A stretch of DNA of 31,772 nucleotides from a virus. Where the stretch lies: IMG/VR virus record IMGVR_UViG_3300009502_000141, positions 1 to 31,772 of that record; one strand, 5' to 3'. Positions 2,495-26,830 of this stretch are shown here, piece after piece (position 1 is the first letter of the stretch; each line of letters starts with the position of its first letter). Below the pieces are notes generated by a model. The model was not told the origin of the DNA and did no database searches. It saw nothing but the letters and a program-made list of their open reading frames with translations. Both the position numbers and the translations under genes were made by a program.

Positions 2495-2509
2495 GTAATT
2501 ATCTATTAA
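2495..2509 (+). promoter_or_regulatory. Degenerate copy of the TAATAATCTCTTAAT element
   Basis: The sequence TAATTATCTATTAAT differs at two of fifteen positions from the element found exactly at 6980, 7317 and 10845. It lies between the fibre cluster and the head module, about 60 bases before the gene starting at 2571, where a promoter would be expected. Function is inferred. Confidence 0.35.
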
Positions 2510-2570
2510 TCGTTTCTACTTAATAGTAGTGCCATATCCACATACCATATCCAAGAAGGAGATTTTTCCT

Positions 2571-3053: not shown

Positions 3054-3409
3054 ATAAAATGGTTGATGAAGTACAGAAAGAGGGTAAAGAGTTAGATAAG
3101 CGACTTAAAGGCCTTCTGGTAAAATATGAGGATCTTTTTAATAACGGTAATAGGGAATTAATACAGGAGAGAGCTGCATCAGGAACCATGAACGGTCTTG
3201 ATGATTTTTATCGGTTTATTCAGCTTATAAGAAGAAATAGGGACGTCGTGGGGTCTCTTGTGAGGGGCTTAAATAATTTGAGGCCACTATCAGGTTATAA
3301 GGTAATTATGGAAGACGTGCCTGAGATTAAGCCCAAGAAAAAAGCAAAGACTCAAACCGTGCGAGTTCCCGTACCGGAAACGGTCGAAGTAGGAGAAATA
3401 AATGGCTAA
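3041..3409 (+). CDS. Hypothetical helical protein directly upstream of portal
   Basis: A 122-residue product with an N-terminal coiled-coil-like segment (about residues 5-35), a central helical part containing YRFIQLIRRNRDVVGSLVRGL, and a Lys/Pro-rich C-terminal tail with KPKKKAKTQ. It overlaps the portal start by eight bases, consistent with translational coupling. The family is not recognised. Position alone suggests a portal- or terminase-associated protein. Confidence 0.75.
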   Translation: MSDLNKMVDEVQKEGKELDKRLKGLLVKYEDLFNNGNRELIQERAASGTMNGLDDFYRFIQLIRRNRDVVGSLVRGLNNLRPLSGYKVIMEDVPEIKPKKKAKTQTVRVPVPETVEVGEING

Positions 3410-6400
3410 GAGAACCAGAGTTGTCACGTCAAATATTCCTGTGATCCCAAGTACCGGCAATTCGAAGATGCCGAAGCTAACCGAAAATGAAATAAAGGCG
3501 CGTCGGTATGCCACAACTACGACTATGGGTGGCATGAGTTTTAATAATAATTTCAGCAATTTCAGTTCTCGTATGGCCGATACAGTCGACAGTCAGTCTG
3601 CTCAGTTCTATTCGCCGCAATTAAGCACGGACTTTCTTGAAAAACCGCAGAATGTAAGAGAGCGTAGGGCTTTCTATCGCTTTTTCTATAATTCAAATGA
3701 AATTGTTGGAAGAGCCGTAGACATTCATTCAACTCTGCCTTTATCAAAACTTAGGCTTGTTCCTCCTAAGGGTAAAAACAAGCATCAAAATGAGTATGTT
3801 TTTAAGTTTTTCCAGGATATGTGTGATGAAATGAAGCTGTTCAAGGTTCTTCTTGAAACGGCCCACGAATTTCATTTAATAGGAAACTGCTTAAGCAAGG
3901 ATGCTGAAGTAAGAACTATAAAAGGCTATAAAAAAGCACAGGATATTATTGAGGGCGATTTAGTCCTTACTGATAAGGGCCGTTTTAGGAGAGTCTTAAA
4001 AGCCTTTTATCGCCCTTCTGAGGATATTCTTAGAATAAAATGTTGGAAAGATTTTCGAGAACTTCCAGTAACGGACGAGCATCCTATCGAGATTGTGAGA
4101 GACGGCAAGTTTATTTTTGAGAAGGCCGGCAACCTTAGTCTGAGCGACTATATTAGAGTTACCTATCCGACGGAAGTCTTAGACCGGGATTATATTGCTT
4201 TTCAATACCCAGAGCACTATAAAAAAGTCGAGGGTGGATATGAGTATTTCTTTGATATAGTTCATCATAAAAAAGAGAGCAGTTATGAGGCAAAGAAGAG
4301 AGTGATAGACTGGCTTGTATCTCTTCAAGAGCCTGTTATAAAGACTAGGAAACAGATTGCTCAGGATTTAAACGTACCATTATCGACTTTTCATGGCATT
4401 ATATCTACGCTGGATCAAGAGTCCGACATGAAAATCCATGAGAGACTTGGAGCTTCAGGCTTTCAGAAGGGCTCGCAGGTTAAGTGGTATCCTATTAAGG
4501 ATATTAAGGTAGATACCTCCTACGATATTAAAATGAGGCGCTTTCTTAAGGCAGTTGATGGCATCAATATAGATAATGATTTTGCTTATCTTGCCGGATT
4601 TTGGGTAGGGGATGGTACCTTGTCCCGTGATGCTAGCAGAGTTACATGGGGAAGAGGCCTGTGGCAGATAGGTGCTAAGGAGACCTGCCATGAAAATTTA
4701 GATAAAATAAGAAATATTCTCATCAAGTTCTTTGGTGAGGATGCTATAACAGAGTGGACATCAGAGGGCATGACGTATTTGAAAGTCATCTCCAATCCAG
4801 GTTTTATTGAATGGTGGTCTAAGAATTTTGGTGAAACAACTTTCGGTAAGAATAATAAAACAGTACCGGAATGGTTTATAGATCTGCCACAAGAGAAACT
4901 GCAGCATTTTTTAGCAGGTTTAATAGACTCTGATGGCTGTATTTCCGTGTCGGGAGAAAAGAAGCATACAGTAGTTGTTGTGGCTATGTGTTCCCGTAAA
5001 ATAATGGACCCTATTAGAGATATCTGCCTTAAGTGCGGCATAGTAGTTAATTACACTGAGGGAGCAGAAAGAGATGTTATTCTTCCTCAAGGTGGGTCAG
5101 ACAGATCTGAGAAAATTTATTCTATAACAGCTTCTGATGAAGAATCTTGTTACTCATTTGCAGAATACTCTATAAAAAAGATTCCTGAGGGCGCCCATTT
5201 TGCCTCTATGCAGCGCTATTATATAAAAGATGATAAGGGACTGGCTTTTAAAGTTAGGAGTATTGATACAGAGACCTATGAAGATATGGTGTATAATTTT
5301 GAAGTAGAAGAGGACCATACCTATCAGGTTGCTGGTTTCAGTACGCATAACTGCTTCATTTTTGCAGAAGAGAGTGAGTGGCAGGAAGAGTATGACCCTC
5401 AGGAATACGCAAAAAAGCAGAGTGAGGCAGAACAAAAGAAAGAGTATTTAAAGCAGAAATTTGATATAACGGATAATGATCCTTTATACAAAGGGTGGAA
5501 AAAGCTACTTATTCTACCGCCAGACCAGGTTAGAGTGAGAAAACTGCCTCTCACAGATGATGTGGCCATTGAATATCTTCCTGACCCCGAAACTCGTAAG
5601 TTTCTTACTTCCGACATCCCTATTGACCCTACAAGCCCGACAAAAAAGGTTAAAAATTACGTTTCAAAAGAGCTTCAAGAGAAAATAAGGATGAGTGGGG
5701 TTATCCCCTTGGATACCGACCCTTATACAGGGTCTCATGTCCATCATCTTGCCCGTAAAAAGTCTCAGTATGAGCCTCTTGGTGTATCTGTTATTGAGAG
5801 ATGTATCAATACCCTCGTCCTCATGGATAAATTGAGACAGGCTCAGACATCTATTGCTTCTCGCCATATGACCCCTATGCGTGTCGTGTGGTCAGACGGG
5901 TTGAATCCTACAGACGTGGATAATCTCAGAGAACAGGTTGACATGGCGCTTGTGGACCCCGATTTTTCCATCATAGCCAACTATGAAATTCATTGGGAAG
6001 AAATGGGTTCCAGCGGCCGCCTTCTGGACATAACTGGCGAGAGTGAAGATTCCATGAATAAGCTCTTTGCCGGGTTAGGTGTTACTCGAGAGATTCTGAC
6101 TGGTGAAGGCACATATTCTGGGAGTAAGATCTCTCTGGAAATCATGAATACCGAGTACCTGTTATTCAGGGAAATCATGCAGGATTACGTAGAAAACTAT
6201 TTGTTTAAGCCTGTGGCCAAGAAAAAGGGCTTCATAGAATACGATGAGTATGGAAATGAAGTACTTCTTTACCCCAGGTTGAGCTTCACACGGCTGGCTA
6301 TTAGGGATAATGAACAGTTTTTTGATGCAGCCTTTCAGTTGTATCAGAAGGGGTCTATTTCCATTGACCTTATTCTTGATATTCTTAACATTGACCCTGA

Positions 6401-6707
6401 GTCGACCAAGCTTAAGATTGAGAAAGATCTGTTCACGGTTAATGATAGCCTTTTCAATGAAGTCATGCGGAATATTTATACCAATGTGGCGGCGCCCCTG
6501 GTTGAGAAGACCGATCTTGTGCAGAAGATGGCTGAATATCTGAAGTTAGAGATGACAGCTGAGGAGACGCCTCCTGCGGAAGGTGCTTCCAGATTTAGTT
6601 CGGAGAATAAGATGACAGCGGAACAAAGGGTGAAGTTGGCCAAGATTCTTAAGTATTTCCAGGATAATCCTCAGGCTATGGATAAAATGATCAGTGGGGC
6701 TAAGTAA
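3402..6707 (+). CDS. Portal protein precursor containing an intein
   Basis: The 1101-residue reading frame encodes a portal interrupted by a 488-residue intein, leaving a mature portal of about 613 residues. The N-extein (1-162) contains NSNEIVGRAVDIHSTLPLSK and ends HEFHLIGN. The C-extein opens CFIFAEESEW and includes KKLLILPPDQVRV, the stem-like QYEPLGVSVIERC segment and EILTGEGTYSGSKISLE, all typical of large myovirus-type portals. The portal is the dodecameric DNA gate at one capsid vertex; it nucleates head assembly and docks terminase. The C-terminal 40 residues are charged and helical. The stop overlaps the next start (TAATG). The extein junction sits in the conserved LIGN-CFIF core, so splicing should be essential for a working portal. 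Confidence 0.9.
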   Translation: MAKRTRVVTSNIPVIPSTGNSKMPKLTENEIKARRYATTTTMGGMSFNNNFSNFSSRMADTVDSQSAQFYSPQLSTDFLEKPQNVRERRAFYRFFYNSNEIVGRAVDIHSTLPLSKLRLVPPKGKNKHQNEYVFKFFQDMCDEMKLFKVLLETAHEFHLIGNCLSKDAEVRTIKGYKKAQDIIEGDLVLTDKGRFRRVLKAFYRPSEDILRIKCWKDFRELPVTDEHPIEIVRDGKFIFEKAGNLSLSDYIRVTYPTEVLDRDYIAFQYPEHYKKVEGGYEYFFDIVHHKKESSYEAKKRVIDWLVSLQEPVIKTRKQIAQDLNVPLSTFHGIISTLDQESDMKIHERLGASGFQKGSQVKWYPIKDIKVDTSYDIKMRRFLKAVDGINIDNDFAYLAGFWVGDGTLSRDASRVTWGRGLWQIGAKETCHENLDKIRNILIKFFGEDAITEWTSEGMTYLKVISNPGFIEWWSKNFGETTFGKNNKTVPEWFIDLPQEKLQHFLAGLIDSDGCISVSGEKKHTVVVVAMCSRKIMDPIRDICLKCGIVVNYTEGAERDVILPQGGSDRSEKIYSITASDEESCYSFAEYSIKKIPEGAHFASMQRYYIKDDKGLAFKVRSIDTETYEDMVYNFEVEEDHTYQVAGFSTHNCFIFAEESEWQEEYDPQEYAKKQSEAEQKKEYLKQKFDITDNDPLYKGWKKLLILPPDQVRVRKLPLTDDVAIEYLPDPETRKFLTSDIPIDPTSPTKKVKNYVSKELQEKIRMSGVIPLDTDPYTGSHVHHLARKKSQYEPLGVSVIERCINTLVLMDKLRQAQTSIASRHMTPMRVVWSDGLNPTDVDNLREQVDMALVDPDFSIIANYEIHWEEMGSSGRLLDITGESEDSMNKLFAGLGVTREILTGEGTYSGSKISLEIMNTEYLLFREIMQDYVENYLFKPVAKKKGFIEYDEYGNEVLLYPRLSFTRLAIRDNEQFFDAAFQLYQKGSISIDLILDILNIDPESTKLKIEKDLFTVNDSLFNEVMRNIYTNVAAPLVEKTDLVQKMAEYLKLEMTAEETPPAEGASRFSSENKMTAEQRVKLAKILKYFQDNPQAMDKMISGAK
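3888..5351 (+). other. Intein in portal with LAGLIDADG homing endonuclease and an HTH-like insert
   Basis: Residues 163-650 of the precursor form a complete intein. Block A starts at Cys163 (CLSKDAEVRTIKG) and block B holds TDEHPIE. Two LAGLIDADG-type helices are visible, LAGFWVGDG near residue 397 and LAGLIDSDG near residue 504. Block F ends DHTYQVAGFSTHN, and the +1 residue is Cys651. All splicing residues (Cys1, the block-B His, terminal His-Asn, Cys+1) are present, so it is predicted to be active. Between block B and the first LAGLIDADG helix lies a segment (about 300-345) containing RKQIAQDLNVPLSTFHGIIS, which reads as a helix-turn-helix and could help DNA recognition. Confidence 0.93.
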
Positions 6708-6982
6708 TGCGTACATCAATCCCCGATATTATTAGAGAGATGGTAGAGGCTTCTACAGGAGAAGTCGTAAAGAAGTTTAAGGCGGCGCCTCTTATAAAGC
6801 CCCCAAGGCGTAAACCCTCGCTTAAAAATAAGAGTGAGCGGGATGATTACATGAAAAATTACATGCAGGATTATCGGGGCGAAAAAGGTAAGGACTATCA
6901 GAAGACTCCGGATGCTATTAAAGAATTAAGGCGGAAACAAAAAGAGAGTTTGAAGAAGACGCTTAAATTAAAGGATTCATAA
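6707..6982 (+). CDS. Small basic protein, hypothetical
   Basis: A 91-residue, very Lys/Arg-rich protein (KPPRRKPSLKNKSERDDYMK) with its ATG overlapping the portal stop by one base, so translation is likely coupled to portal. It is predicted helical and soluble. The strong positive charge suggests nucleic-acid or acidic-protein contact, for example an internal head or assembly factor, but I recognise no family. Its stop codon is the first triplet of the repeated TAATAATCTCTTAAT element. Confidence 0.75.
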   Translation: MRTSIPDIIREMVEASTGEVVKKFKAAPLIKPPRRKPSLKNKSERDDYMKNYMQDYRGEKGKDYQKTPDAIKELRRKQKESLKKTLKLKDS

Positions 6983-6994
6983 TAATCTCTTAAT
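6980..6994 (+). promoter_or_regulatory. TAATAATCTCTTAAT element, copy 1
   Basis: This is an exact 15-base match to copies at 7317 and 10845. It begins with the stop codon of the preceding gene and lies about 30 bases upstream of the AAGGAG and ATG of the 7023 gene. A second TCTTAAT follows within 20 bases. Three exact copies, all in short intergenic gaps of the head module and all on the + strand, suggest a phage promoter; this is inferred. Confidence 0.5.
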
Positions 6995-7022
6995 CCGCCT
7001 TCTTAATCGAAGGAGATTTATT

Positions 7023-7319
7023 ATGCCGAAGAAAAAAGGCCTTGGGGTATCTGTTGAGAAAGCTCTTGGAGTAATGGATACTCTTGTTGAGGGTTTAAAG
7101 GAGTTTGCTCACAGTAAGCTGAAAGATGGCCTTGTGGCTAATAAAATTTCTGATGAGAAGCTGCATAAGGACGTGACGGAAGCGAGCAGTGACGCCTTTG
7201 CCCTTATGCAGAAGATTAAGGATTTAAGAATTAAAATTGATAATGCAAAGCCGGATAAAGTTAATACTCGCTTTGCTAATCAGGTTGTAAAAAACTTCCT
7301 TGAAGGACAGATTCGATAA
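7023..7319 (+). CDS. Hypothetical helical protein of the head module
   Basis: A 98-residue, Lys-rich, largely helical protein (residues about 10-80) with no membrane segment. The ATG at 7023 is preceded by GAAGGAG, a strong ribosome-binding site. It is flanked on both sides by the repeated intergenic element, so it may form its own transcription unit, perhaps because a high copy number is needed. No family is recognised. Confidence 0.75.
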   Translation: MPKKKGLGVSVEKALGVMDTLVEGLKEFAHSKLKDGLVANKISDEKLHKDVTEASSDAFALMQKIKDLRIKIDNAKPDKVNTRFANQVVKNFLEGQIR

Positions 7320-7335
7320 TAATCTCTTAATACAT
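7317..7335 (+). promoter_or_regulatory. TAATAATCTCTTAATACAT element, copy 2
   Basis: This 19-base copy is identical to the one at 10845, and both are followed nine bases later by a TTTGCAA or ATTGCAA box. It starts in the stop codon of the previous gene and lies about 37 bases before the ATG at 7372. The identical spacing of the two boxes in two unrelated gaps argues for a functional site such as a phage promoter. Function is inferred. Confidence 0.55.
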
Positions 7336-7371
7336 CGTAAAATTGCAACATCAGCAATTGAAGGTACTTAT

Positions 7372-7917
7372 ATGAAAGTCATAGTTTTAGTTCCAAATGT
7401 AGTAAGAAACTATGTAAATAGCTTCCCTGAGACTACTCAGAACGCCTATAAGTATTTCAATTATGATAACAGGGTCGTAGATGAGCGGGCTGATAAAAGA
7501 TTTGATAACAAAGCTCCTTACAGGGGGCCGGAAGATCTCATAAATAGCGACTATGATACCGTTGTGACGTATGCCAGGACACTTGTTAATCCTATCCTGG
7601 CAAAATACAGCCCGAATGTGGCCTGTGAGGATGCTCTTCACATGGCTATAAAGTCGTTTGACCGTGGCATTTATGACGGTAAGATCAACGCAAGCAAGTT
7701 TCAGGTTTTATTGGATACCTTAAAGCAGCCTCAAAAGATGGCCGCTAAGAAGGAAAAGGAAGCTCCTAAAAAAGCCCCTTTAAAGACCATTAGAATCAAG
7801 GTTGATCCTAAGGCCGTACCGATGGATACAAGTGTCAGACGGCATCGTATGGAAACAAGAAGTGCTCCAGGCGGCACAAGAGTAGTAAAACAAAAAGGTC
7901 GTTATACAGTAATCTAA
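7372..7917 (+). CDS. Hypothetical head-module protein with basic C-terminal tail
   Basis: A 181-residue product. I chose the ATG at 7372 because GAAGG precedes it and because an earlier GTG start at 7300 would overlap the previous gene and run through the promoter-like element. Residues 1-120 look globular (MKVIVLVPNVVRNYVNSF; YSPNVACEDALHMAIKSFDR). Residues 125-181 form a Lys/Ala/Pro- and Arg-rich tail ending GGTRVVKQKGRYTVI. No family is recognised. The basic tail may contact DNA or the acidic protein encoded further downstream. Confidence 0.75.
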   Translation: MKVIVLVPNVVRNYVNSFPETTQNAYKYFNYDNRVVDERADKRFDNKAPYRGPEDLINSDYDTVVTYARTLVNPILAKYSPNVACEDALHMAIKSFDRGIYDGKINASKFQVLLDTLKQPQKMAAKKEKEAPKKAPLKTIRIKVDPKAVPMDTSVRRHRMETRSAPGGTRVVKQKGRYTVI

Positions 7918-7952
7918 TACGAAATTTTCAAACTTCATTAAGGAGGTTTTTA

Positions 7953-8264
7953 ATGGCTCTTCAGAATGCAAAGCAGTACACAGAAAGACTGGACAAAGTG
8001 GCGGCTGAGGTTGAAGCTTCTTCTCCCGAGCTCGCTCTTCAGCTTGACATGGTTTCAGATGTCATTGAAGGAAAGCGCGATGCATCAACCCTCAAGTTTG
8101 ATGCGGATGAAGCGAAATACATGGCTGGCCGTTTCAATAACAACGTCCGTAATCGTGAAGCCGATGAACCTTATATGGACGATTACAACAAGAGCAATTT
8201 TGAGCAGGTTATTACGGTTCGTCGTAACCCGACGCCCGTTAAGCTTGCTTATCAGAAGCTCTAA
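7953..8264 (+). CDS. Small hypothetical protein, well-expressed head-module gene
   Basis: A 103-residue soluble, acidic and mostly helical protein (SSPELALQLDMVSDVIEGKR) with a strong AAGGAGG upstream of its ATG. It ends with the basic segment ITVRRNPTPVKLAYQKL. Codon choice is cleaner and more GC-rich than in the flanking genes, as in the major capsid gene, hinting at high expression. A rho-independent terminator follows directly. It may be a minor virion or assembly protein; no family is recognised. Confidence 0.75.
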   Translation: MALQNAKQYTERLDKVAAEVEASSPELALQLDMVSDVIEGKRDASTLKFDADEAKYMAGRFNNNVRNREADEPYMDDYNKSNFEQVITVRRNPTPVKLAYQKL

Positions 8265-8283
8265 GAGTTCCTTTATTAAGGTA

Positions 8284-8318
8284 AGGAACCCGGGAACTCT
8301 ACCTGGGTTCCTTTTTTT
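8284..8318 (+). terminator. Rho-independent terminator
   Basis: An 11-bp stem (left arm AGGAACCCGGG, right arm CCTGGGTTCCT, one G-T wobble) closes a seven-base loop AACTCTA and is followed by a run of T. It ends the transcript that includes the 7953 gene. Confidence 0.85.
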
Positions 8319-8337
8319 CTAAGAAAGGAGCTTTTAA

Positions 8338-8895
8338 ATGCCCGCTCTGTACCCTTCAGCAGTGGCCCCGGAAAACTTTCCTGTAGGCTGCTGTGTCCGC
8401 AAATTCGTTACTGACATAAATGTCACTCCTTACACAGGAATTGTGACACAGGTTACACCCACGACTTATAAGGTGTGGGTTCAGTGGCCTGTAGGTAATG
8501 CTACCCCTGAAGATCCTGAGACTCTGGTAAAGGTGAATCCGGCTATTTTTGGCATGCCTTCCGTCTGCTGTGACTCAGGTTACAGCTCCTATGAGAAGAC
8601 CAAGTCTGAAAAGACAAATGGTAAATTCCCGCACAGGATTACCCCGAGCCGTGATTTGACCAAGCCTATGCCTTTTGTTATTACCGCAAAGGATAAAATG
8701 GGCATTCGCATAGCACATACCTTTGCTACGAATGTCGTTGGTAAACTGGTTAAGGATATCTGTGCATGCAAAAAAGAGGGTTTATCGGATCTTAGGGCTT
8801 ACGATAAGATTTTTCATAAATACGGAAATTATTGTTCTGATCATATAATCAGGTCTTCTGTCCAAAAGGTTTACAACCCTTCTGAAAAGGAATAA
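8338..8895 (+). CDS. Hypothetical protein with SH3-like beta-barrel segment
   Basis: A 185-residue protein with a good AAAGGAG upstream. Residues about 30-70 (YTGIVTQVTPTTYKVWVQWP, then GNATPEDPETLVKV) read like the SH3-like barrel often annotated in phage head proteins ('G.VT.V....V.V.WP.G....P..L..V'). The C-terminal half is basic and helical, with FATNVVGKLVKDIC. Several Cys residues (CC at 18-19 and again near 77, CAC near 141) could bind metal but do not form a standard zinc finger. It starts just after the terminator and continues into the next two genes with 2-base gaps. Confidence 0.7.
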   Translation: MPALYPSAVAPENFPVGCCVRKFVTDINVTPYTGIVTQVTPTTYKVWVQWPVGNATPEDPETLVKVNPAIFGMPSVCCDSGYSSYEKTKSEKTNGKFPHRITPSRDLTKPMPFVITAKDKMGIRIAHTFATNVVGKLVKDICACKKEGLSDLRAYDKIFHKYGNYCSDHIIRSSVQKVYNPSEKE

Positions 8896-8897
8896 GT

Positions 8898-9185
8898 ATG
8901 TTTCTTCTCAAATACAAAATTGGCGATGACGTCTTTTACCGTATTACCAATACGAAACAGCCTTCTGTGAAAAGTGTCGCCTTTGAGGGCCCTCTTGCCG
9001 TTGTTCAGACAAAGAGAATCAATAACGCCTTAGCCATGATTGAGAAGGCCCTGCATCAGAAGGAAGAAAAAGAAGAGAAAGAAGTTGAGGAAGGCCAGAA
9101 TCTTCCTGAAGTAAAAAAAGAAGAAGAGAAGGAAGCCAAGAAGAAAATGGCCTATTCGGTAATCCATAATTTTATCAAGGCATAA
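8898..9185 (+). CDS. Small charged protein, hypothetical
   Basis: A 95-residue protein with an N-terminal globular part (LLKYKIGDDVFYRI, again SH3-like) and a C-terminal third of alternating Glu and Lys that should form a single charged helix. It is two bases after the previous gene and two bases before the protease gene, so it belongs to the same transcript. The first part resembles short barrel domains like that in the preceding product, suggesting the two may interact. No firm family assignment. Confidence 0.7.
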   Translation: MFLLKYKIGDDVFYRITNTKQPSVKSVAFEGPLAVVQTKRINNALAMIEKALHQKEEKEEKEVEEGQNLPEVKKEEEKEAKKKMAYSVIHNFIKA

Positions 9186-9187
9186 TC

Positions 9188-10822
9188 ATGGCGATGATGC
9201 GCTACGGCTCCGCTACAGTAGTTGAGCCACATGTTACTTCAGAGCAATGGCAGAAATCCGTCTGCTGCGGGCATAAAGGTAAATGTGCCTGTGGTACAAA
9301 TAGCTGCAGAACAAAAGTTGCTCGTACCGTTATTGCTAAGTATTCCCCTGAGAAATATCTTCTTAGTCATTGCAGTATTATTGCCGCTGTGGATGTTGAT
9401 GAAGCCCCAACATCTAAGAGTGCTTACAAAGATTACTTAATTAAGCCTGAATACTCCAAGTTCGTTAATAATAATGGGGATGCTTGGACTAAAACTCTTT
9501 TGGCCAATGCATACAGAACCTTTATCGGCGCCGATAATTTCTTAGAACATGTTCAGATCAAAGAATTATCCAAAGGTAAAGTTATTGATGCCGCTTTGAG
9601 GGAAGTCCCTGTAGGTAAGACAAAAGAAGGTAAGGATCTTACTACATTTTATGTTGATATCCTGGTAGCTACTGATCGTAAGCATAAAGACCTTGTAGCA
9701 AAGATTGAAAGTAAACAGATGCAGTCCTTGAGTATGGGTTGCAAAATTGCTTTCAGTATTTGCTCTAAATGTGGCAATAAGGCTGTTGATGAAACACAGT
9801 CCTGTGAGCATGTCCGTTATGAGAAGAATAATACTTTTTATGATGATAACGGCGTTCAGAGAAAAGTTGCTGAATTATGCGGTCATATAAATGATAAAGA
9901 GAGCGTCACGTTTATGGACGCTTCCTGGGTTGCAAATCCCGCTTTTACTGGGGCGGTTGTTCGGAATGTGATTACTCCTCCTGAAGATGTTCTGGCAAAG
10001 ATAAAGAAAGCGGAAAAGAAAGAAGCCTACACATATAATGCCTCTGATTTTCTTAAGGCAGCAAAATTAGCCGCAGATCCTAAAGAAGAAACTCCTGAGA
10101 ATCCGTGGGCTGGTGATGTTCCTAAAGAAGATGCCCCTGCTGCTGCGGAAGCTCCTGCTGAAGGTGGGACTCCTGAAGGTGAGGTTCCTGCAGAAGCGCC
10201 TGCGGATGAAGCGACTCCTGCAGATCCTGCAAGTACTCCTGAGGAAGCCGCTCCTGAAGAAGCCCTTCCTGAAGAGCCTGGTAGGGACGACTTAAAGCAG
10301 TGGAAGATAAAAATTAAGCAGAAACTTCTAAAACAGATTGGCGACGAGATTTCTTCGGAGTTATCTGGTGAAGATGAAGAGGGGCCTATTGGTCCGGATA
10401 GTCTTGATGAGAGTTTGATTCAACCGACAGCTTCCACGGCTCTTAAGCAGATGTGGTCGATGAAAAACAGCTGGGATAAATACCTTAAAAAGACTGCTGG
10501 TCATTTAGATGAGAAGAGTTATTCTAAGTTGAAGTTTGGGACTTACATGATTCTGACCGGTAATGATATGAGTGCTCTTAAAGACTACGGTTATAACCGT
10601 AGAGATTTTCTAGCGGTTTTATCTAGCCTTGACGGATGCTTTAAAAACCCTCTTCCGCTAGATGTTAAAAAAGCTGTGGCTTCTCTGAGTGGCACTAAGG
10701 GTATGACTCTTGATAAACTCTCCTTTGCAATTCAGAAATTGTCAGGGAGAAAATTATCCAATGAAGAGATCAATAAATCAGTAGTTTGGTTGAAGCTTAT
10801 GGATAGCTACGGGGAAGCCTAA
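9188..10822 (+). CDS. Prohead (head maturation) protease with Cys clusters and long Pro/Ala/Glu linker
   Basis: A 544-residue protein. Residues about 95-265 match the herpes/HK97/T4-type prohead serine protease pattern: FLEHVQ around His121, QSLSMGCK around Ser182 (the 'LSIGF'-type nucleophile) and FMDASWVANPAFTGAVV, equivalent to the 'SLV..PAN..A' strand. The enzyme digests scaffold inside the prohead and usually itself. Unusual here are an N-terminal Cys cluster (CCGHKGKCACGTNSC) and two Cys/His sets in the protease core (CSKCGN, then CEH and CGH), which suggest bound zinc. Residues about 300-365 are a Pro/Ala/Glu linker, and the rest is a helical domain that may act as internal scaffold. 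Gene order protease, acidic protein, decoration, capsid supports the call. Confidence 0.75.
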   Translation: MAMMRYGSATVVEPHVTSEQWQKSVCCGHKGKCACGTNSCRTKVARTVIAKYSPEKYLLSHCSIIAAVDVDEAPTSKSAYKDYLIKPEYSKFVNNNGDAWTKTLLANAYRTFIGADNFLEHVQIKELSKGKVIDAALREVPVGKTKEGKDLTTFYVDILVATDRKHKDLVAKIESKQMQSLSMGCKIAFSICSKCGNKAVDETQSCEHVRYEKNNTFYDDNGVQRKVAELCGHINDKESVTFMDASWVANPAFTGAVVRNVITPPEDVLAKIKKAEKKEAYTYNASDFLKAAKLAADPKEETPENPWAGDVPKEDAPAAAEAPAEGGTPEGEVPAEAPADEATPADPASTPEEAAPEEALPEEPGRDDLKQWKIKIKQKLLKQIGDEISSELSGEDEEGPIGPDSLDESLIQPTASTALKQMWSMKNSWDKYLKKTAGHLDEKSYSKLKFGTYMILTGNDMSALKDYGYNRRDFLAVLSSLDGCFKNPLPLDVKKAVASLSGTKGMTLDKLSFAIQKLSGRKLSNEEINKSVVWLKLMDSYGEA

Positions 10823-10844
10823 ACATAGTCATTTGAAGTATTTG

Positions 10845-10863
10845 TAATAATCTCTTAATACAT
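10845..10863 (+). promoter_or_regulatory. TAATAATCTCTTAATACAT element, copy 3
   Basis: Identical over 19 bases to the copy at 7317, with the same nine-base gap to a TTTGCAA box. It lies in the 106-base gap between the protease gene and the acidic-protein gene, on the + strand; CCTTAATAGGAGG follows just before the start codon. Probable phage promoter, inferred. Confidence 0.55.
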
Positions 10864-10928
10864 GAATAATTTGCAATAAAAATAAGATCTGTAAAATCCG
10901 AACAAATTTCCTTAATAGGAGGCTTCAC

Positions 10929-11876
10929 ATGCGTCAGAGACTAAGTTGGGATGCGAAGAAGGTTGCTGAGATCAGCAAGAAAGCTGATCCGTACACCATG
11001 AATCAGGAACATACAAACAACCCCGTTGAAAAGTATCACACTGGTGATCCTTCAACATGGGCCGAAGACCAGGACACACGTAAGCCGTGGGAAGGTGAAG
11101 GCCGTAATGAAGTTGGTCTTCCTTCTGAGTCCGCTGGACCGGCTCCGATGGCTGCTCCTGCACCTGCAGCGGCACCTGCTCCTGCACCTGAAGGCGAAGA
11201 AGCTCCTGAGCAGCAGGCTGTTATGGCCGCTCGCAAGCTCGAAGCAAAAGCTCTTCAGTGTATCACTGTCGCACAGAGAATGCTTCCTGGTGCAACCGAT
11301 CATCTCGTCGAAGCCCAGGCTACCGATCTTATGTATCTCCCGGAGCGCTGCATCCTTGCAACTCTTCAGCGTCAGGCTGAACTTGCTGAGGAACTTGCGA
11401 AGAAGGACGATGAAGACGAGGATGAAGATGAGGCAACTGCCACAGCTTCTGCATGCAAAGACGAGGACGAGGATGAGGACGAAGATGAAGCCACTGCAAC
11501 TGCAGCGGATCAGAACGCCCCGAACCCTCAGGCCGCCCCTGCTCCTGCAAAAGAGGACGACGAAGACGATGAGGACGAGGATGAAGTGACCGCTGCGGAA
11601 GAGAAGAAAGAGGAAAAGACGGAAGAAGAGGCAGCATCTGCCCCTGTCGCTCCTGAAGCACCGAAGACAGCGAAGAAGAAGAAAGACGACGATGATGACG
11701 ATGACGACGATTGTTGCACCGCCAGCACCGATCTTCTTGACCAGATTTTCGCACAGACCACCCCGAAAATGGGTGCGAAGAAACTTAGCGGGATTGTGAA
11801 GCAGGCTTCAACGGGTTCAAATTCCCTTGACGGTCTGTGGAATTGTCCTCCGGACGTTTCTGAAGCTTTTAAGTAA
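10929..11876 (+). CDS. Very acidic, low-complexity scaffold-like protein
   Basis: A 315-residue protein starting after AGGAGG. Residues about 1-60 are ordinary; about 67-90 is Ala/Pro rich. A helical segment (EAKALQCITVAQRMLPGATD to LQRQAELAEELAKK, about 100-155) is followed by three Asp/Glu tracts (DEDEDEDE types) separated by Ala/Thr/Pro spacers and one Lys run leading into nine Asp. The last 45 residues return to a normal composition (KKLSGIVKQAS, NSLDGLWNCPPDV). Position between protease and capsid genes suggests a scaffolding or internal head protein that the protease removes. The acidic runs could mimic DNA or exclude it until packaging. This is inferred from composition and context; no family is recognised. 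Confidence 0.7.
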   Translation: MRQRLSWDAKKVAEISKKADPYTMNQEHTNNPVEKYHTGDPSTWAEDQDTRKPWEGEGRNEVGLPSESAGPAPMAAPAPAAAPAPAPEGEEAPEQQAVMAARKLEAKALQCITVAQRMLPGATDHLVEAQATDLMYLPERCILATLQRQAELAEELAKKDDEDEDEDEATATASACKDEDEDEDEDEATATAADQNAPNPQAAPAPAKEDDEDDEDEDEVTAAEEKKEEKTEEEAASAPVAPEAPKTAKKKKDDDDDDDDDCCTASTDLLDQIFAQTTPKMGAKKLSGIVKQASTGSNSLDGLWNCPPDVSEAFK

Positions 11877-11885
11877 GATAAAAAT

Positions 11886-11915
11886 TCAGGGATCTCCTGT
11901 ATGGGGGATCCCTGA
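11886..11915 (+). terminator. Strong hairpin between acidic-protein and decoration genes
   Basis: A 12-bp stem (TCAGGGATCTCC pairing with GGGGATCCCTGA, one wobble) encloses a six-base loop. No T run follows, so it may be a weak terminator, an RNA processing site or an mRNA stabiliser. A degenerate TTATTCCCTTAATA element follows immediately at about 11919-11932, which could restart transcription for the capsid genes. Confidence 0.55.
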
Positions 11916-11956
11916 TAGTTATTCCCTTAATATCCGAAAGAGGAGGTGAAAACACT

Positions 11957-12556
11957 ATGGATTCCAATCTTCCAGTTCCAAACAACCACTGTGAAGTACT
12001 GTATCGCCAGACGTTCAATACCTACGGGTCTATTGAAACAACGTACTCGCTGACACAGGACAATCGCGTGGGCAACGCTCAAAGGACTGGTAACACACGT
12101 CTGAACGCTAGTACCAATAAAGGTATTCTGGCGGGCAGTGTGGTTTGTGCGGCCGGTGAAGGTCTTATCGGTCCTGCAATCGCAGCATTGGGAAGCGACA
12201 GTACTGTTACGTCCGATAAGGTCGTCGGTATTGCTGTCAACGATGCAGTGGGTAATCCGTATGAGTCAAGCTCTGCGGTTGCGTCGAATAAGGTCGTCTA
12301 TGCACACGGTTCAGGCACTGTGTTCAAAACCGACATTTATGAGACCATCACGTATGGAGGAGGAGCACTTACGTATGCTTACGGCGATAAGCTGTATGCG
12401 TCGCGTAACGGTCTTCTCACAAACAGTACAGGTCTGACCACAGCCAACCAGGCAGCCGCTGCTGCAGGTACAGCTGCGAACATGACCATCGTAGGAATTG
12501 TCCTACAGAAACCAACAACAACCGATCCGTTTATGGTTGTTCAACTTAGAGTGTGA
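11957..12556 (+). CDS. Capsid decoration or head-fibre-like protein
   Basis: A 199-residue, Ala/Gly/Thr/Val-rich beta protein with no signal peptide, preceded by AGGAGGTG. It contains repeated beta-strand segments such as NKGILAGSVVCAAGEGLI, DKVVGIAVND and NKVVYAHGSGTVF, the pattern of phage capsid-decorating and parallel-beta 'DUF2190'-like proteins. Decoration proteins bind the outside of the expanded shell and stabilise it. The gene sits 14 bases upstream of the major capsid gene and shares its clean codon use, fitting a stoichiometric capsid component. The exact family cannot be fixed without a search. Confidence 0.65.
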   Translation: MDSNLPVPNNHCEVLYRQTFNTYGSIETTYSLTQDNRVGNAQRTGNTRLNASTNKGILAGSVVCAAGEGLIGPAIAALGSDSTVTSDKVVGIAVNDAVGNPYESSSAVASNKVVYAHGSGTVFKTDIYETITYGGGALTYAYGDKLYASRNGLLTNSTGLTTANQAAAAAGTAANMTIVGIVLQKPTTTDPFMVVQLRV

Positions 12557-12570
12557 GGAGGTGAGTCTCA

Positions 12571-13446
12571 ATGCCCGATGTAATTAGCAATGAAGTAAAA
12601 CAGCAGATTATCGCTGAGTTCATGAAGACCGCTGGCGGTCGTGCTAAGTTGGCTGCGTCGATGACCCAGCCTCTACGTCTCAGGAGAGACTACACCTCTG
12701 TCGGTCGCAAGACCTTCTTGGTGGAACAGCTCCCGGACGGCGCACTTCCGATCTACGATAAAGACGCGAATGTGACAGCGTACGTCGTTGGCGAAGAGGG
12801 TCAGAATATTCTGGCCATTCAGAAGCCTCGCCGTGTCATTTTCCCGCTTTTCGAGATTTCAAGCAACCCTGAGATTCCGTTGACACAGGTCAAGGAACGC
12901 CGGTTCGACCTCATCGAACGTAGCCAGGACCTTGCAAAAGCTGAAATTCAGGCTGAAGAAGACAATCGCGTCTTCGCAGTTCTGGATGCAGTTGCTGCAA
13001 ATGGTTTTGACAACATCGGTGCGACGAATGCAGACGTCCTTGCTGGTGCCCCGGTAACTCCGTCAGATCTCGCAGATGCCTTTGCGGAAATCGAACGTCA
13101 TGACCTTCGCGTTGCAAGAGTTTTTGTGAACGCGACTGACTATACCGATATCCGTAAATGGGGACGCGATGTTCTTGACATCGAGACTCAGGCAACCCTT
13201 CTTAAGACTGGTTTGATGGCCACCCTTTGGGGTGCTCAGATAATCGTCTCTCGTAGGGTCCCGGTTGGATACATCTATGTCTGTGCAGAACCTGAATTTT
13301 TTGGGCGGATTCCTGTCCGCACAGAATTAACAGTTCTTTCTGCCGATGACCCCCGTAACCGTACCATTGGATTCTCGGTGTTTGAGAATTTGGGTATTGG
13401 TTGCCATAACCCCCTGGGTTTGGTGAGGGTTCAGATCACCCGGTAA
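12571..13446 (+). CDS. Major capsid protein, HK97-like fold
   Basis: A 291-residue protein preceded by GAGGAGGTG. Features typical of HK97-fold capsid proteins are an N-terminal helix (AEFMKTAGGRAKLAASM), a DGALPIYDKD segment entering the E-loop region, FEISSNPEIPL, a long spine-helix-like stretch DLIERSQDLAKAEIQAEEDN, the P-domain/A-domain region with FVNATDYTDIRKWG and a C-terminal beta region (EFFGRIPVRTELTVLSADDP). There is no long N-terminal delta domain, so scaffolding is probably supplied separately by the acidic protein and the protease C-terminus. Codon choice is the most biased in the window, expected for the most abundant virion protein. A strong terminator follows. Confidence 0.9.
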   Translation: MPDVISNEVKQQIIAEFMKTAGGRAKLAASMTQPLRLRRDYTSVGRKTFLVEQLPDGALPIYDKDANVTAYVVGEEGQNILAIQKPRRVIFPLFEISSNPEIPLTQVKERRFDLIERSQDLAKAEIQAEEDNRVFAVLDAVAANGFDNIGATNADVLAGAPVTPSDLADAFAEIERHDLRVARVFVNATDYTDIRKWGRDVLDIETQATLLKTGLMATLWGAQIIVSRRVPVGYIYVCAEPEFFGRIPVRTELTVLSADDPRNRTIGFSVFENLGIGCHNPLGLVRVQITR

Positions 13447-13472
13447 ATAATCGCTGAAAAGTGATTAAAAAG

Positions 13473-13502
13473 GGCTCCTGGAGAAATCCAGGAGCCTTTT
13501 TT
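13473..13502 (+). terminator. Strong rho-independent terminator after the capsid gene
   Basis: A perfect 9-bp stem (GGCTCCTGG with CCAGGAGCC) and a six-base loop AGAAAT, followed by six T. An A run precedes it, so it could work in both directions. It closes the head module. Confidence 0.93.
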
Positions 13503-13834
13503 ATTGGTTTTTCTTATGATCCTAAAAAGCCTACCATGCCCTTTAGTTGTAATTAAATATTCGAATAGTACGATCCTAATAAATTAACCATTCACTTTAG
13601 TGAGTATCTTTTAATAAAAGCCATTGTATTATTTATGCGCCTGGAGTATAAAGAAGTATCTCTTGATGAGACTTCATGGGAAGACTTTTTATGTAAACTT
13701 ATGGGTCATCTGCAGAAAATACCGTCAGTGCAGACAAAAACTATGGTATGTAATTAAATCAACATGTTATAAGAAATTTAACCCTTAACTTTATTCCTGC
13801 CATAATCTTCAGTATTATCATATATATATCTTCC
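13503..13834 (+). other. AT-rich stretch without a convincing gene
   Basis: About 330 bases between the capsid terminator and the accessory genes. The only reading frame with an ATG of any length is 13635-13757 (40 codons; opens MRLEYKEVSLDETSW), which lacks a ribosome-binding site but has a plausible amphipathic sequence. GTAATTAAAT occurs twice (13540, 13750) and CTTTTAATAAAA lies near 13610. Promoters for the accessory block are likely here, but none can be fixed. Confidence 0.4.
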
Positions 13835-18975: not shown

Positions 18976-18991
18976 TAATAATCTTTAAATA
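18976..18991 (+). promoter_or_regulatory. Degenerate copy of the TAATAATCTCTTAATA element
   Basis: TAATAATCTTTAAATA differs at two of sixteen positions from the head-module element and lies about 25 bases before the ribosome-binding site of the 19014 gene. Position and orientation fit a promoter; inferred. Confidence 0.4.
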
Positions 18992-19013: not shown

Positions 19014-19190
19014 ATGGAGAAGAAACATATGGTAGTCAGGGTAACTAAAGAAGAGTTCGAACTGGATGATGGTAGGGTCTATCCACATATGGTAGAACTC
19101 GAAGAGGCTCCTACTGTGGAAGAATTCCAGAAAACTTATGATAAGGTGAGAGATCTATTTAAGGATATGCTGAATAATAATGAGGTTTGA
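19014..19190 (+). CDS. Small conserved phage protein
   Basis: A 58-residue acidic protein with a good TAAGGAG upstream. The sequence MVVRVTKEEFELDDGRVYPH followed by APTVEEFQKTYDKVRDLF matches a short protein pattern I recall from many phages ('EFELEDGRV.PHP..L...PTVEEFQ..YD'). Its function is unknown. It follows a promoter-like element and starts the run of small genes that ends at the IS607 element. Confidence 0.75.
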   Translation: MEKKHMVVRVTKEEFELDDGRVYPHMVELEEAPTVEEFQKTYDKVRDLFKDMLNNNEV

Positions 19191-19937: not shown

Positions 19938-20097
19938 AGACCCCAATGATGTATGCTCCAGTGATCCCTGTGATTATTGCGTTCATAAAGGTAAAAGACA
20001 GTCTTGTAACCCGTGCTATGAGCATGCAGGTTTTCAAGGACTCCGTTTGAAAAAAATGCAGTCTGTTTCCAAGCAGGATGCCCCCAAAAATGGATAG
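19927..20097 (+). CDS. Small Cys-rich protein at the left edge of the IS607 element
   Basis: A 56-residue product starting after AAGGGA. CSSDPCDYCVHKG and CNPCYEHAGF give two Cys pairs, as in several short phage proteins. Its last 20 codons run into a perfect inverted repeat at 20031-20053 and then over the TnpA start, so the C-terminus may be element sequence rather than the original gene end. It may therefore be truncated by, or fused to, the transposon. Confidence 0.55.
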   Translation: MKSKDPNDVCSSDPCDYCVHKGKRQSCNPCYEHAGFQGLRLKKMQSVSKQDAPKNG

Positions 20098-20719
20098 GCT
20101 GATAAATATAAAAGAGGCATCCGAAATGCTTGGTGTGGATCAAAAAACTCTTAGACGATGGGAATCCGAGAATCAGATTATTTCGGCTAAGACTAAAGGA
20201 GGGCATCGTAGGTATCTTTTATCAGAAGTTCAAGCTCTCCAAGGTATAGATAAACCTGAAGAAGTGCTCAAATCAGTAGCTATCTACTGCCGAGTGTCTT
20301 CTAATGAGCAGAAACAAAAGGGCGACCTGGATAGACAAAAAGGGAGAATGCTTGACTACTGTATATCTAAAAAATATAACGTCGAGTACTCCTTTGATGA
20401 GGTAGGATCAGGGATGTCCGACAAGCGTACTAAACTACTTAGACTTATGGATCTTTGTATTGAAGGTAAAATATTCAAAGTGATAGTTGAACATAAAGAT
20501 CGTTTAGCTAGGTTTAATTTAAACTATCTCAGGAAGTTTTTTGATAGTCACGGAGTAGCCTTAGAGGTAGTAGAAGAGACATTACCTAAATCTTATGAAA
20601 ACGAGCTGGTAGAGGACATGCTATCTTTAATATCTTCATTCTCCTCTAAGATATATGGAAAGAGAAGTGCTGAAAACAGGCGTAAGAAGAAGGAAATGGC
20701 TGATGGAATCCTTAACTAA
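20078..20719 (+). CDS. tnpA: IS607-family transposase TnpA (serine recombinase)
   Basis: A 213-residue protein. Residues about 8-55 form a MerR-type winged helix (INIKEASEMLGVDQKTLRRW, ending KGGHRRYLLSE). Residues about 65-205 are a resolvase-type serine recombinase domain: VAIYCRVSSNEQ with the catalytic Ser at 74, and EHKDRLARF with the active-site Arg. The order DNA-binding then catalytic domain is the hallmark of IS607 TnpA. Such enzymes move a circular intermediate with little target specificity. ATG 20078 could be replaced by ATG 20090; no strong ribosome-binding site is present. It overlaps tnpB by 17 bases. Confidence 0.93.
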   Translation: MPPKMDRLINIKEASEMLGVDQKTLRRWESENQIISAKTKGGHRRYLLSEVQALQGIDKPEEVLKSVAIYCRVSSNEQKQKGDLDRQKGRMLDYCISKKYNVEYSFDEVGSGMSDKRTKLLRLMDLCIEGKIFKVIVEHKDRLARFNLNYLRKFFDSHGVALEVVEETLPKSYENELVEDMLSLISSFSSKIYGKRSAENRRKKKEMADGILN

Positions 20720-22268
20720 AACAGTAGAATTAAAAATAGAGGATACCTATATCTACCCAGTCCTGGATAATATGGGGAACTACTATAGCCATATAGAAAA
20801 AGTTTTATATAATTGCCTATTTGATAAAGAGATCACCAATGACCTCTGGAAAAACCTTAAGTCTCAATATATTGCTGAATACGAGATACCTGGAAGGCTC
20901 TTCAATGCAATCTATAATGAAGTAAAAGGTAAGATAGACGGAGCTAAAGAACTTCATCAGCAGGCTTTAAAAGACGCTGATGAACGAATAAAAGGGCTTA
21001 AGGATAAAATAAAGAAGCGTGAGAGAAAGATCAAGACTGATAATAAGCTGACTAAAGAAGTCAAAAATAAATTATGGCTCTCTATTTTTCAGTGGAAGCA
21101 GAAAATAGACTGCTTAGGGCAGTACATAAATTTTCATAAGCCTACTAAGATTCTGTTTGGTACCAAGGATTTCTATAAAAAGCAGTGGACTCTTGAGGAG
21201 TATAAAACTGATCATGAAAAATGGTTGAAAGAATGGAATAGGAGAAGAGACTACCATTTTAGTTTTATAGGTTCGAAAGATGAATCTAATGGGAACCAAC
21301 TATGTCAGTATTATAGGGAAGGCGAAAAAGAGTCCTTACAGGTCAGGCTCCCTGATGCTGTGGTAGAGGAGTGTGGTAAATATGTGACCATTCCTGTGAC
21401 TACAGATAAGCCCTATTACAATGACTTCCATTCAGCCGTGTCAAAAGGTACTGCCCTATCTTATAAATTTTTGAAGAAGGAAAACGGTTCCTGGTATGCT
21501 CATATTAGTTTTACCATGGAAAAAGAGATACAGAAAATAGGTACAGGATGCTTAGGGATAGATATAAACTTCGGTCTTATAGCTACTACTGAAGTAGACA
21601 GGTCTGGGAATTTTAAAGGGATGCAGAACTACCCCTGTGATCCCGAGTCTTTGACCTCTGAGCAGATGGAAGATCTTATATCTATCCAGTTGGACGAGAT
21701 CGTCAGTAATGCTAAACTTAAAGGCTATTGTATTTCTGCCGAGAATTTAGATCTGTCTAAGAAAAAACTTACTAAATATGACCCAGTTACTAACCGTAAA
21801 ATTCATATGATTGCCTACGATAAAATATGGAAATTATTAGTTTCTAAATGTTTCAAGGCAAGTGTTCAACTTATAGGAGTAAATCCGGCTTATACATCTT
21901 TTATAGGCCATTTTAAATATGAAAAAATGTACGGGCTTTCGCAGCACAACGCTGCAGCTATGTGCATAGCCCGTCGAGGTTTAGGACTTAAGGATAGGCT
22001 TCCTGCGTTTATTGCAAGTGTCCTCCAAAGTGGAGAAGAGAGTAAATGTAAGACTAAGAAAACTTCGTTGAAGAGTTCATGGTCTCACGTTTACAGGCAC
22101 AGGCACCATTGGGCGCATTGGGCTTATCTGAAGAAAAACCTTGAGAGATGTTCCTCTATTTTTAATAAAAATATAGAGGATCCCGGAGGCAGTTACGCTA
22201 CCTTTGAGGACAAACTAACGTCAAGGTTTAATCCTTCTTATTTGTCGTCCATAGGAAGGTCTGAATGA
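20703..22268 (+). CDS. tnpB: TnpB-like RNA-guided nuclease family protein, variant RuvC site
   Basis: A 521-residue protein. I prefer ATG 20703 (an AAGGAA lies ten bases upstream, and TnpB proteins start close to this TKTVELKIED segment) over ATG 20655. A coiled-coil region precedes the split RuvC nuclease. RuvC-I is CLGIDINFGLIA (Asp codon at 21561) and RuvC-II is ISAENLDLSKKK (Glu codon at 21741). RuvC-III reads LSQHNAAAMCIARRGLG (codons from 21939). The canonical Asp of 'DxNAAxNI' is missing, with Gln-His instead. No CxxC zinc ribbon lies between RuvC-II and III. The ending resembles IS605/IS607 'TnpB-related' proteins with 'GLSVHQAAALVIARRGLG'. Known TnpBs cut DNA guided by an RNA from the element end; whether this variant cuts is open. 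Confidence 0.85.
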   Translation: MESLTKTVELKIEDTYIYPVLDNMGNYYSHIEKVLYNCLFDKEITNDLWKNLKSQYIAEYEIPGRLFNAIYNEVKGKIDGAKELHQQALKDADERIKGLKDKIKKRERKIKTDNKLTKEVKNKLWLSIFQWKQKIDCLGQYINFHKPTKILFGTKDFYKKQWTLEEYKTDHEKWLKEWNRRRDYHFSFIGSKDESNGNQLCQYYREGEKESLQVRLPDAVVEECGKYVTIPVTTDKPYYNDFHSAVSKGTALSYKFLKKENGSWYAHISFTMEKEIQKIGTGCLGIDINFGLIATTEVDRSGNFKGMQNYPCDPESLTSEQMEDLISIQLDEIVSNAKLKGYCISAENLDLSKKKLTKYDPVTNRKIHMIAYDKIWKLLVSKCFKASVQLIGVNPAYTSFIGHFKYEKMYGLSQHNAAAMCIARRGLGLKDRLPAFIASVLQSGEESKCKTKKTSLKSSWSHVYRHRHHWAHWAYLKKNLERCSSIFNKNIEDPGGSYATFEDKLTSRFNPSYLSSIGRSE

Positions 22269-26811: not shown

Positions 26812-26830
26812 ACATATCCCTAAAGGCTGC

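What the first reader, a model, noticed from the sequence alone, without database searches (positions are those of the whole stretch)
6980..10880. Repeated intergenic element TAATAATCTCTTAATACAT: a probable phage-specific promoter
Seen: exact 15-base copies at 6980, 7317 and 10845; the latter two match over 19 bases and share a nine-base gap to a TTGCAA box. Looser copies occur at 2495, 11919 and 18976. All are on the + strand, in short gaps, upstream of ribosome-binding sites. It is unlike sigma-70 consensus and only loosely recalls the T4 late TATAAATA box.
Basis: partly seen in the sequence, partly recalled or inferred. Interest (0 to 1): 0.72.

Follow-up and report, generated by a model that had tools for sequence, protein, structure and literature searches.

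The report
Genome-wide promoter of a huge phage
A 16-letter DNA signal, repeated in front of the shell and tail genes of an uncultured huge bacterial virus and its relatives, is almost certainly the switch that turns those genes on, most likely by directing the host's RNA polymerase with a virus-made specificity factor that remains to be identified by experiment.

Summary
The repeat is real and the promoter reading is well supported. The window is an IMG/VR fragment of a huge-phage lineage distantly related to Bacillus phage G. The element is one uninterrupted 16-bp block, TAATaATCTnTTAATA. Clean copies lie at 2496, 6980, 7317, 10845 and 18976; 11919 is not a convincing member. It lies upstream of the same genes in every usable relative (17/17, 7/7, 7/7) and is absent before neighbouring genes. 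A matrix built from the window and close relatives, applied to an unused 258-kb relative, finds 34 sites: 33 in the 6.7% of sequence between genes, 29 pointing into a start codon (median 46 bp away). Unseeded motif discovery recovers it. There is no -35 box. Structural genes carry it; the recombination and metabolism genes checked do not begin at one. No T4 gp55 and no phage RNA polymerase were found. The 258-kb relative encodes a sigma-70 factor, and a sigma-4-like two-HTH protein sits 20-23 kb upstream of the capsid gene across the lineage. Best reading: a late promoter used by host RNA polymerase with a phage specificity factor.

The parts
2496..2511 (+). promoter element, looser copy TAATTATCTATTAATC, 19.7 bits, 58 bp before the ATG at 2571
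6980..6995 (+). promoter element TAATAATCTCTTAATC before gene 7023-7319; its first TAA is the stop codon of gene 6707-6982
   Evidence: 7 of 7 orthologous upstream regions carry it
7317..7332 (+). promoter element TAATAATCTCTTAATA before gene 7372-7917; its first TAA is the stop codon of gene 7023-7319
   Evidence: found in all 7 orthologous upstream regions that lie in a gap
7343..7348 (+). TTGCAA downstream box; its TGCAA begins 12 nt after the last A of the element
   Evidence: TGCAW at offset 11-12 in relatives L006-L009, L012 and L017
10845..10860 (+). promoter element TAATAATCTCTTAATA before gene 10929-11876 and the capsid unit
   Evidence: 17 of 17 orthologous upstream regions carry it
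10871..10876 (+). TTGCAA downstream box, same spacing as at 7343
18976..18991 (+). promoter element TAATAATCTTTAAATA, 20.2 bits, before small gene 19014-19190; not in the matrix
10929..13446 (+). unit led by the 10845 element: acidic scaffold-like ORF 10929-11876, ORF 11957-12556, major capsid protein 12571-13446
   Evidence: capsid phrog_2522 E 9.4e-56; 'scaffold-like' is inferred from composition and position
13466..13503 (+). intrinsic terminator after the capsid gene, 17-pair stem with T tail

Best explanation
The element is the main phage-specific promoter, probably of the late class, of a huge-phage lineage related to Bacillus phage G. It is a single uninterrupted 16-bp block, TAATaATCTnTTAATA, with no -35 box, whose last six bases (TTAATA) would be opened as the -10 region. 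Transcription would start about 6-8 nt downstream and give leaders of roughly 40 nt before the RBS (inferred from other phages). The phage has no detectable RNA polymerase of its own, so the host core enzyme would be redirected by a phage specificity factor. Candidates are the phage sigma-70 factor seen in G019 and the conserved sigma-4-like two-HTH protein upstream of the capsid genes. Shown: the element, its conservation, and its genome-wide position and orientation. Partly shown: preference for structural genes. Inferred: use by host RNA polymerase, the factor that reads it, late timing, and the start site.
For: Exact repeats beyond chance. Orthologous placement 17/17, 7/7 and 7/7 in otherwise diverged gaps, with 0 before g3402, g6707, g8338, g8898, g9188 and the capsid gene. 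Held-out scans: G019 34 hits, 33 in gaps, 29 before same-strand starts against 4 before opposite-strand starts, and column-shuffled matrices give mean 3.2, max 10; G021 15 hits, 12 in gaps. Unseeded discovery ranks it first in G019 (about 47 of 128 upstream regions) and G021, with log-likelihood 207 and 101 against 61 and 51 for shuffled controls. Information is confined to positions 0-15 in G019, with nothing above 0.35 bits upstream. Distances to start codons: median 46 bp in G019, 44.5 in close relatives, 45 in G021. G019 genes led by it include tail sheath and tail-fibre-like genes, while UvsX-like, exonuclease, tRNA nucleotidyltransferase and NAD synthetase genes do not begin at one. No RNAP beta domain in ten records, including partial ones. 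G019 encodes a sigma with regions 2 and 4.
Against: No transcript data exist for any member. About half of the G019 sites lie in the left block, which is not structural, and one weak site (14.1 bits) precedes ribonucleotide reductase, so 'late only' is not proven. The sigma-70 of G019 was not found in other viral contigs at the sensitivity used, and the two-HTH protein also occurs in relatives that lack this exact consensus, so no factor is tied to the element.
Confidence: 0.78

Rival explanations
1. It is a promoter, but of the host's own sigma factor (housekeeping or alternative), so the phage supplies no specificity factor.
For: No phage factor has been linked to it, the host is unknown, and TTAATA is loosely -10-like.
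Against: No -35 element; sigma-70-type sites in the window are at chance level; a contiguous 16-bp consensus is unusual for a housekeeping sigma (general knowledge); a related genome, G032, uses a drifted version beside a quite different two-box class.
Confidence: 0.12
2. It is an operator for a phage DNA-binding regulator placed near otherwise unrecognised promoters, not the polymerase binding site itself.
For: Long, contiguous, strongly conserved block; conserved HTH proteins in the lineage.
Against: It is not palindromic, it has a fixed orientation toward the gene, and no second conserved promoter block accompanies it.
Confidence: 0.06
3. It acts at the RNA level, as a processing site, a terminator with tandem stop codons, or a translation enhancer.
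For: TAATAA supplies the stop codon of the upstream gene at 6980 and 7317; 10 of 33 G019 sites overlap an upstream stop codon.
Against: Nine of 33 G019 sites have a divergent upstream neighbour, so no transcript needs ending or processing there, and 23 do not overlap a stop codon. It sits well upstream of the RBS and has no hairpin.
Confidence: 0.03
4. Chance repeat or compositional artefact in AT-rich gaps.
For: An exact 19-mer hit exists in an unrelated contig, L004, so single hits can be chance.
Against: Column-shuffled matrices and dinucleotide shuffles do not reproduce the counts; orthologous conservation.
Confidence: 0.01

Closest known systems
T4 late promoters (TATAAATA; gp55/gp33/gp45 with host RNAP; PMC2988020, PMC3184105)
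   Same: single element with no -35 box; precedes structural genes; read by host RNAP core with phage factors; homing-endonuclease-like genes can also carry it
   Different: 16 bp instead of 8; different consensus; no gp55 (phrog_234) match in any of ten genomes or records
phiEco32 middle/late promoters (tAATGTAtA, read by phage sigma gp36; PMC8948821)
   Same: single AT-rich element upstream of structural genes; phage-encoded sigma with host RNAP; starts 6-8 bp downstream in phiEco32
   Different: different consensus and length; the G019 sigma is a fuller sigma-70 protein that keeps region 4
phage 7-11 late promoters (GTAAtg-16-aCTA; PMC8948821)
   Same: phage-sigma-dependent late promoters at the starts of structural units
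   Different: bipartite in 7-11; one block here
phiKZ/AR9 promoters of phage multisubunit RNA polymerases (PMC5312081, PMC7598289)
   Same: phage-specific promoters of giant phages
   Different: this lineage shows no RNAP beta domain

Membership tests
phage-specific promoter (general kind) | recurs genome-wide in gaps, oriented toward the downstream gene, at a consistent distance from the start codon | tested here: met
phage-specific promoter (general kind) | transcripts begin a few bases downstream | not testable with these tools
   no RNA data available
phage-specific promoter (general kind) | conserved at orthologous positions | tested here: met
   17/17, 7/7 and 7/7
T4-type late promoter | single -10-type element, no -35 | tested here: met
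T4-type late promoter | TATAAATA consensus | tested here: not met
   consensus is TAATaATCTnTTAATA
T4-type late promoter | gp55-family sigma encoded | tested here: not met
   phrog_234 search, 0 of 10 at E <= 1; some of the records are fragments
T4-type late promoter | sliding clamp and gp33 dependence | not tested
   -
host sigma-70 promoter | TTGACA/TATAAT boxes at 16-18 bp, in excess over chance | tested here: not met
   35 found, 37 expected
phiKZ/AR9-type promoter | phage-encoded multisubunit RNAP | tested here: not met
   PF00562, 0 of 10
phage-sigma-dependent promoter | phage encodes a sigma factor with region 2 | tested here: met
   in G019: PF04542 E 1.3e-17 and PF04545 E 1e-15; not in the window, which is a fragment
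phage-sigma-dependent promoter | that sigma recognises the element | not testable with these tools
   needs in vitro transcription

The most novel reading that the evidence does not exclude
The lineage reads a single 16-bp late promoter with a split specificity system unrelated in sequence to T4 gp55/gp33: a region-2 sigma opens TTAATA while a separate, conserved sigma-4-like two-HTH protein, encoded about 20 kb upstream of the capsid gene, clamps onto the polymerase flap or reads the upstream TAATAATCT half. That would be an independent evolution of a split late sigma.
Probability: 0.15. Interest if true: 0.78.

Novelty: new member of a known kind. Interest (0 to 1): 0.52.

Why it matters
No promoter of this huge-phage lineage turned up in the papers I could search. 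A sequence-defined promoter lets anyone predict transcription units and likely late genes in uncultured relatives, including many genes of unknown function, and it makes the question of which factor redirects the host polymerase directly testable. The drifted version in a related genome offers a natural series for studying how a promoter and its reader evolve together.

Tried and rejected
An exact 19-mer scan of IMG/VR gave only an unrelated, giant-virus-like contig, a chance hit. Phage G does not share the element: 51 matches against 54 for the reversed pattern, and the matrix finds 8 hits against 5.0 for shuffles; discovery there gives other signals. Tunturi_5 shows no pattern matches, and the partial LR745208 and G016 no matrix hits. 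The copy at 11919 was rejected. Host assignment failed: only two metagenome bins (an Altiarchaeales and an Actinomycetota bin) hold a relative of the capsid gene. A purine at a fixed start position could not be resolved. Searches with the G019 sigma and two-HTH protein in viral contigs gave almost only G019 itself.

Full report
OBSERVATION. The three exact copies and two looser ones are present as described. The 19-mer with up to three mismatches is found three times against none in 100 shuffles. The spacing to TTGCAA is 7 bases, not 9, and the copy at 11919 is not supported.

CONTEXT. The window is a whole IMG/VR record of 31,772 bases and a fragment. Its capsid protein is 77-94% identical to proteins of other contigs, some up to 529 kb long, 49% to Tunturiibacter phage Tunturi_5 and 39% to Bacillus phage G. 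The elements at 6980, 7317 and 10845 lie in the head-gene region: portal with intein-like features at 3402-6707, protease-like 9188-10822, and capsid 12571-13446. The 10845 element heads a unit that ends at a strong intrinsic terminator at 13466-13503.

CONSERVATION. I located orthologues of window genes in the closest relatives (L005-L024) and scored 130 bp upstream. The element is present in 17 of 17 regions before the 10929 orthologue, 7 of 7 before the 7023 orthologue and 7 of 9 before the 7300 orthologue (true start 7372 by homology). The two misses, L022 and L023, align at an internal start inside a longer gene, so no upstream gap was tested. Genes that have no gap in the window (3402, 6707, 8338, 8898, 9188, 12571) have none. 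The close-relative scores partly reflect the matrix having been built from those same sites; the next test does not have that problem.

GENOME-WIDE TEST. A matrix of 18 sites from the window and L006-L024 was applied to G019 (258 kb), G021 (135 kb) and G011 (46 kb), which contributed no sites. G019: 34 hits at 14 bits or more, 33 in gaps (6.7% of sequence; binomial P 6e-38, treating hits as independent), 29 before a same-strand start, 4 before an opposite-strand start, against a mean of 3.2 (max 10) with 100 column-shuffled matrices. G021: 15 hits, 12 in gaps. G011: 5 hits, 4 in gaps. Gene starts come from a simple caller of my own, so individual distances are approximate. Unseeded expectation-maximisation ranks the same motif first in G019 and G021.

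ANATOMY. In G019 all information lies in the 16 positions; nothing exceeds 0.35 bits in the 45 bases upstream, so there is no -35 box. The sequence before the start codon is typically about 45 nt. In the window's close relatives a TGCAA/TGCAT box lies 11-12 nt after the element, only before orthologues of genes 7372 and 10929, in all 12 instances found; it is absent from G019 and G021. The first TAA of the element often doubles as the stop codon of the upstream gene (10 of 33 in G019), but 9 of 33 have a divergent neighbour, which argues against a terminator or RNA-processing role.

WHICH GENES. In G019 the element precedes genes for tail sheath, collagen-like tail fibre and another tail-fibre-like protein, a virion-protein-like gene and HNH endonucleases, and occurs across the structural block. 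UvsX-like, exonuclease, tRNA nucleotidyltransferase and NAD synthetase genes do not begin at one. About half the sites lie in the left, largely minus-strand block, several before isolated plus-strand genes, and a weak site precedes ribonucleotide reductase; so 'late' is the most likely class, not a demonstrated one.

WHO READS IT. None of ten genomes or records has a T4 gp55-family match or an RNAP beta domain. G019 encodes a sigma-70 protein with regions 2 and 4. A second protein of about 200-260 aa, with a sigma-region-4 domain and a second conserved HTH-like block, is shared by at least eight relatives. In those I placed (G011, G016, G019, G025, G026, G032) it lies about 20-23 kb upstream of the capsid gene on the same strand (coordinates). 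Its AlphaFold model (mean pLDDT 77.5) places residues about 31-97 in the sigma-4 fold, best sigma row Z 10.8 with rmsd 1.6 over 61 residues; Foldseek E-values are not significant and the rest of the protein is barely tested. Neither protein has been linked to the element, and the two-HTH protein also occurs where this consensus is absent (G016), so if it acts there it acts on something else.

HOW FAR IT EXTENDS. G032 (289 kb) has a drifted form, RATARTCnnTYTATA, with 18 hits (14 in gaps) against 3 (1 in gaps) for the reversed pattern, as well as a separate, abundant two-box class. Upstream of the scaffold-like gene in many more distant relatives there is a TCTnTYTATA-like string next to the stop codon, but a genome-wide pattern count is low in most of those genomes, so shared use there is a lead only. 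Phage G shows no enrichment.

KNOWN RELATIVES. Single-element, -35-less phage promoters are known in T4 (TATAAATA) and phiEco32 (tAATGTAtA), each read by a phage sigma with host RNA polymerase (PMC2988020, PMC3184105, PMC8948821). This works like those; it is not a member of either, because consensus and, for T4, the gp55 family were tested and not met. [quoted passage not shown] this finding supplies such a promoter. I found no earlier description of this motif in the open-access papers searched, which is not proof that none exists.

VERDICT. Promoter: very likely. Phage-specific and used by a phage factor: likely. Late class: likely.

Noticed in passing
window 7343-7348 and 10871-10876; L006-L009, L012, L013, L016, L017: A TGCAA/TGCAT box at a fixed 11-12 nt after the promoter element, only before two genes and conserved while the flanks diverge; possibly a regulatory site in the first transcribed bases.
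   Followed up: partly
G032 (L141-L155): A second, more abundant motif pair, roughly GGTTGnnTTTTT and TTCCGTATA, before about 100 genes; likely another phage-specific promoter class.
   Followed up: no
L160 1030-1653; Bacillus phage G about 3.2-3.8 kb: A small protein with a sigma region 4 domain above the Pfam cut-off and a sigma-like N-terminal part, plus a region 2 match at 45.8 kb, although PMC7824862 states that its group 3 (phage G) lacks sigma factors.
   Followed up: partly
Bacillus phage G (L181-L200): A recurrent AAAAAnnGTTTACA string upstream of genes, found by motif discovery; perhaps a promoter class of phage G.
   Followed up: no
window 26765-28165 (+): 466-aa ORF with an N-terminal sigma-70 region 4 domain and a long C-terminal part of unknown function.
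   Followed up: partly
window 3402-6707 and 24577-26811: Portal and RlaP-like nucleotidyltransferase ORFs both carry LAGLIDADG domains, probably inteins.
   Followed up: no
window 20078-22268: Serine-recombinase-like ORF followed by a weakly transposase-like ORF, resembling an IS607-type element.
   Followed up: no
L085 4855-5799 (-): A sigma-70 factor in the 258-kb relative whose region 2.4 (WWIRQQVLEALANQSRIARIP) recalls Bacteroidota primary sigmas from memory; yet the gaps carry strong Shine-Dalgarno sequences.
   Followed up: no
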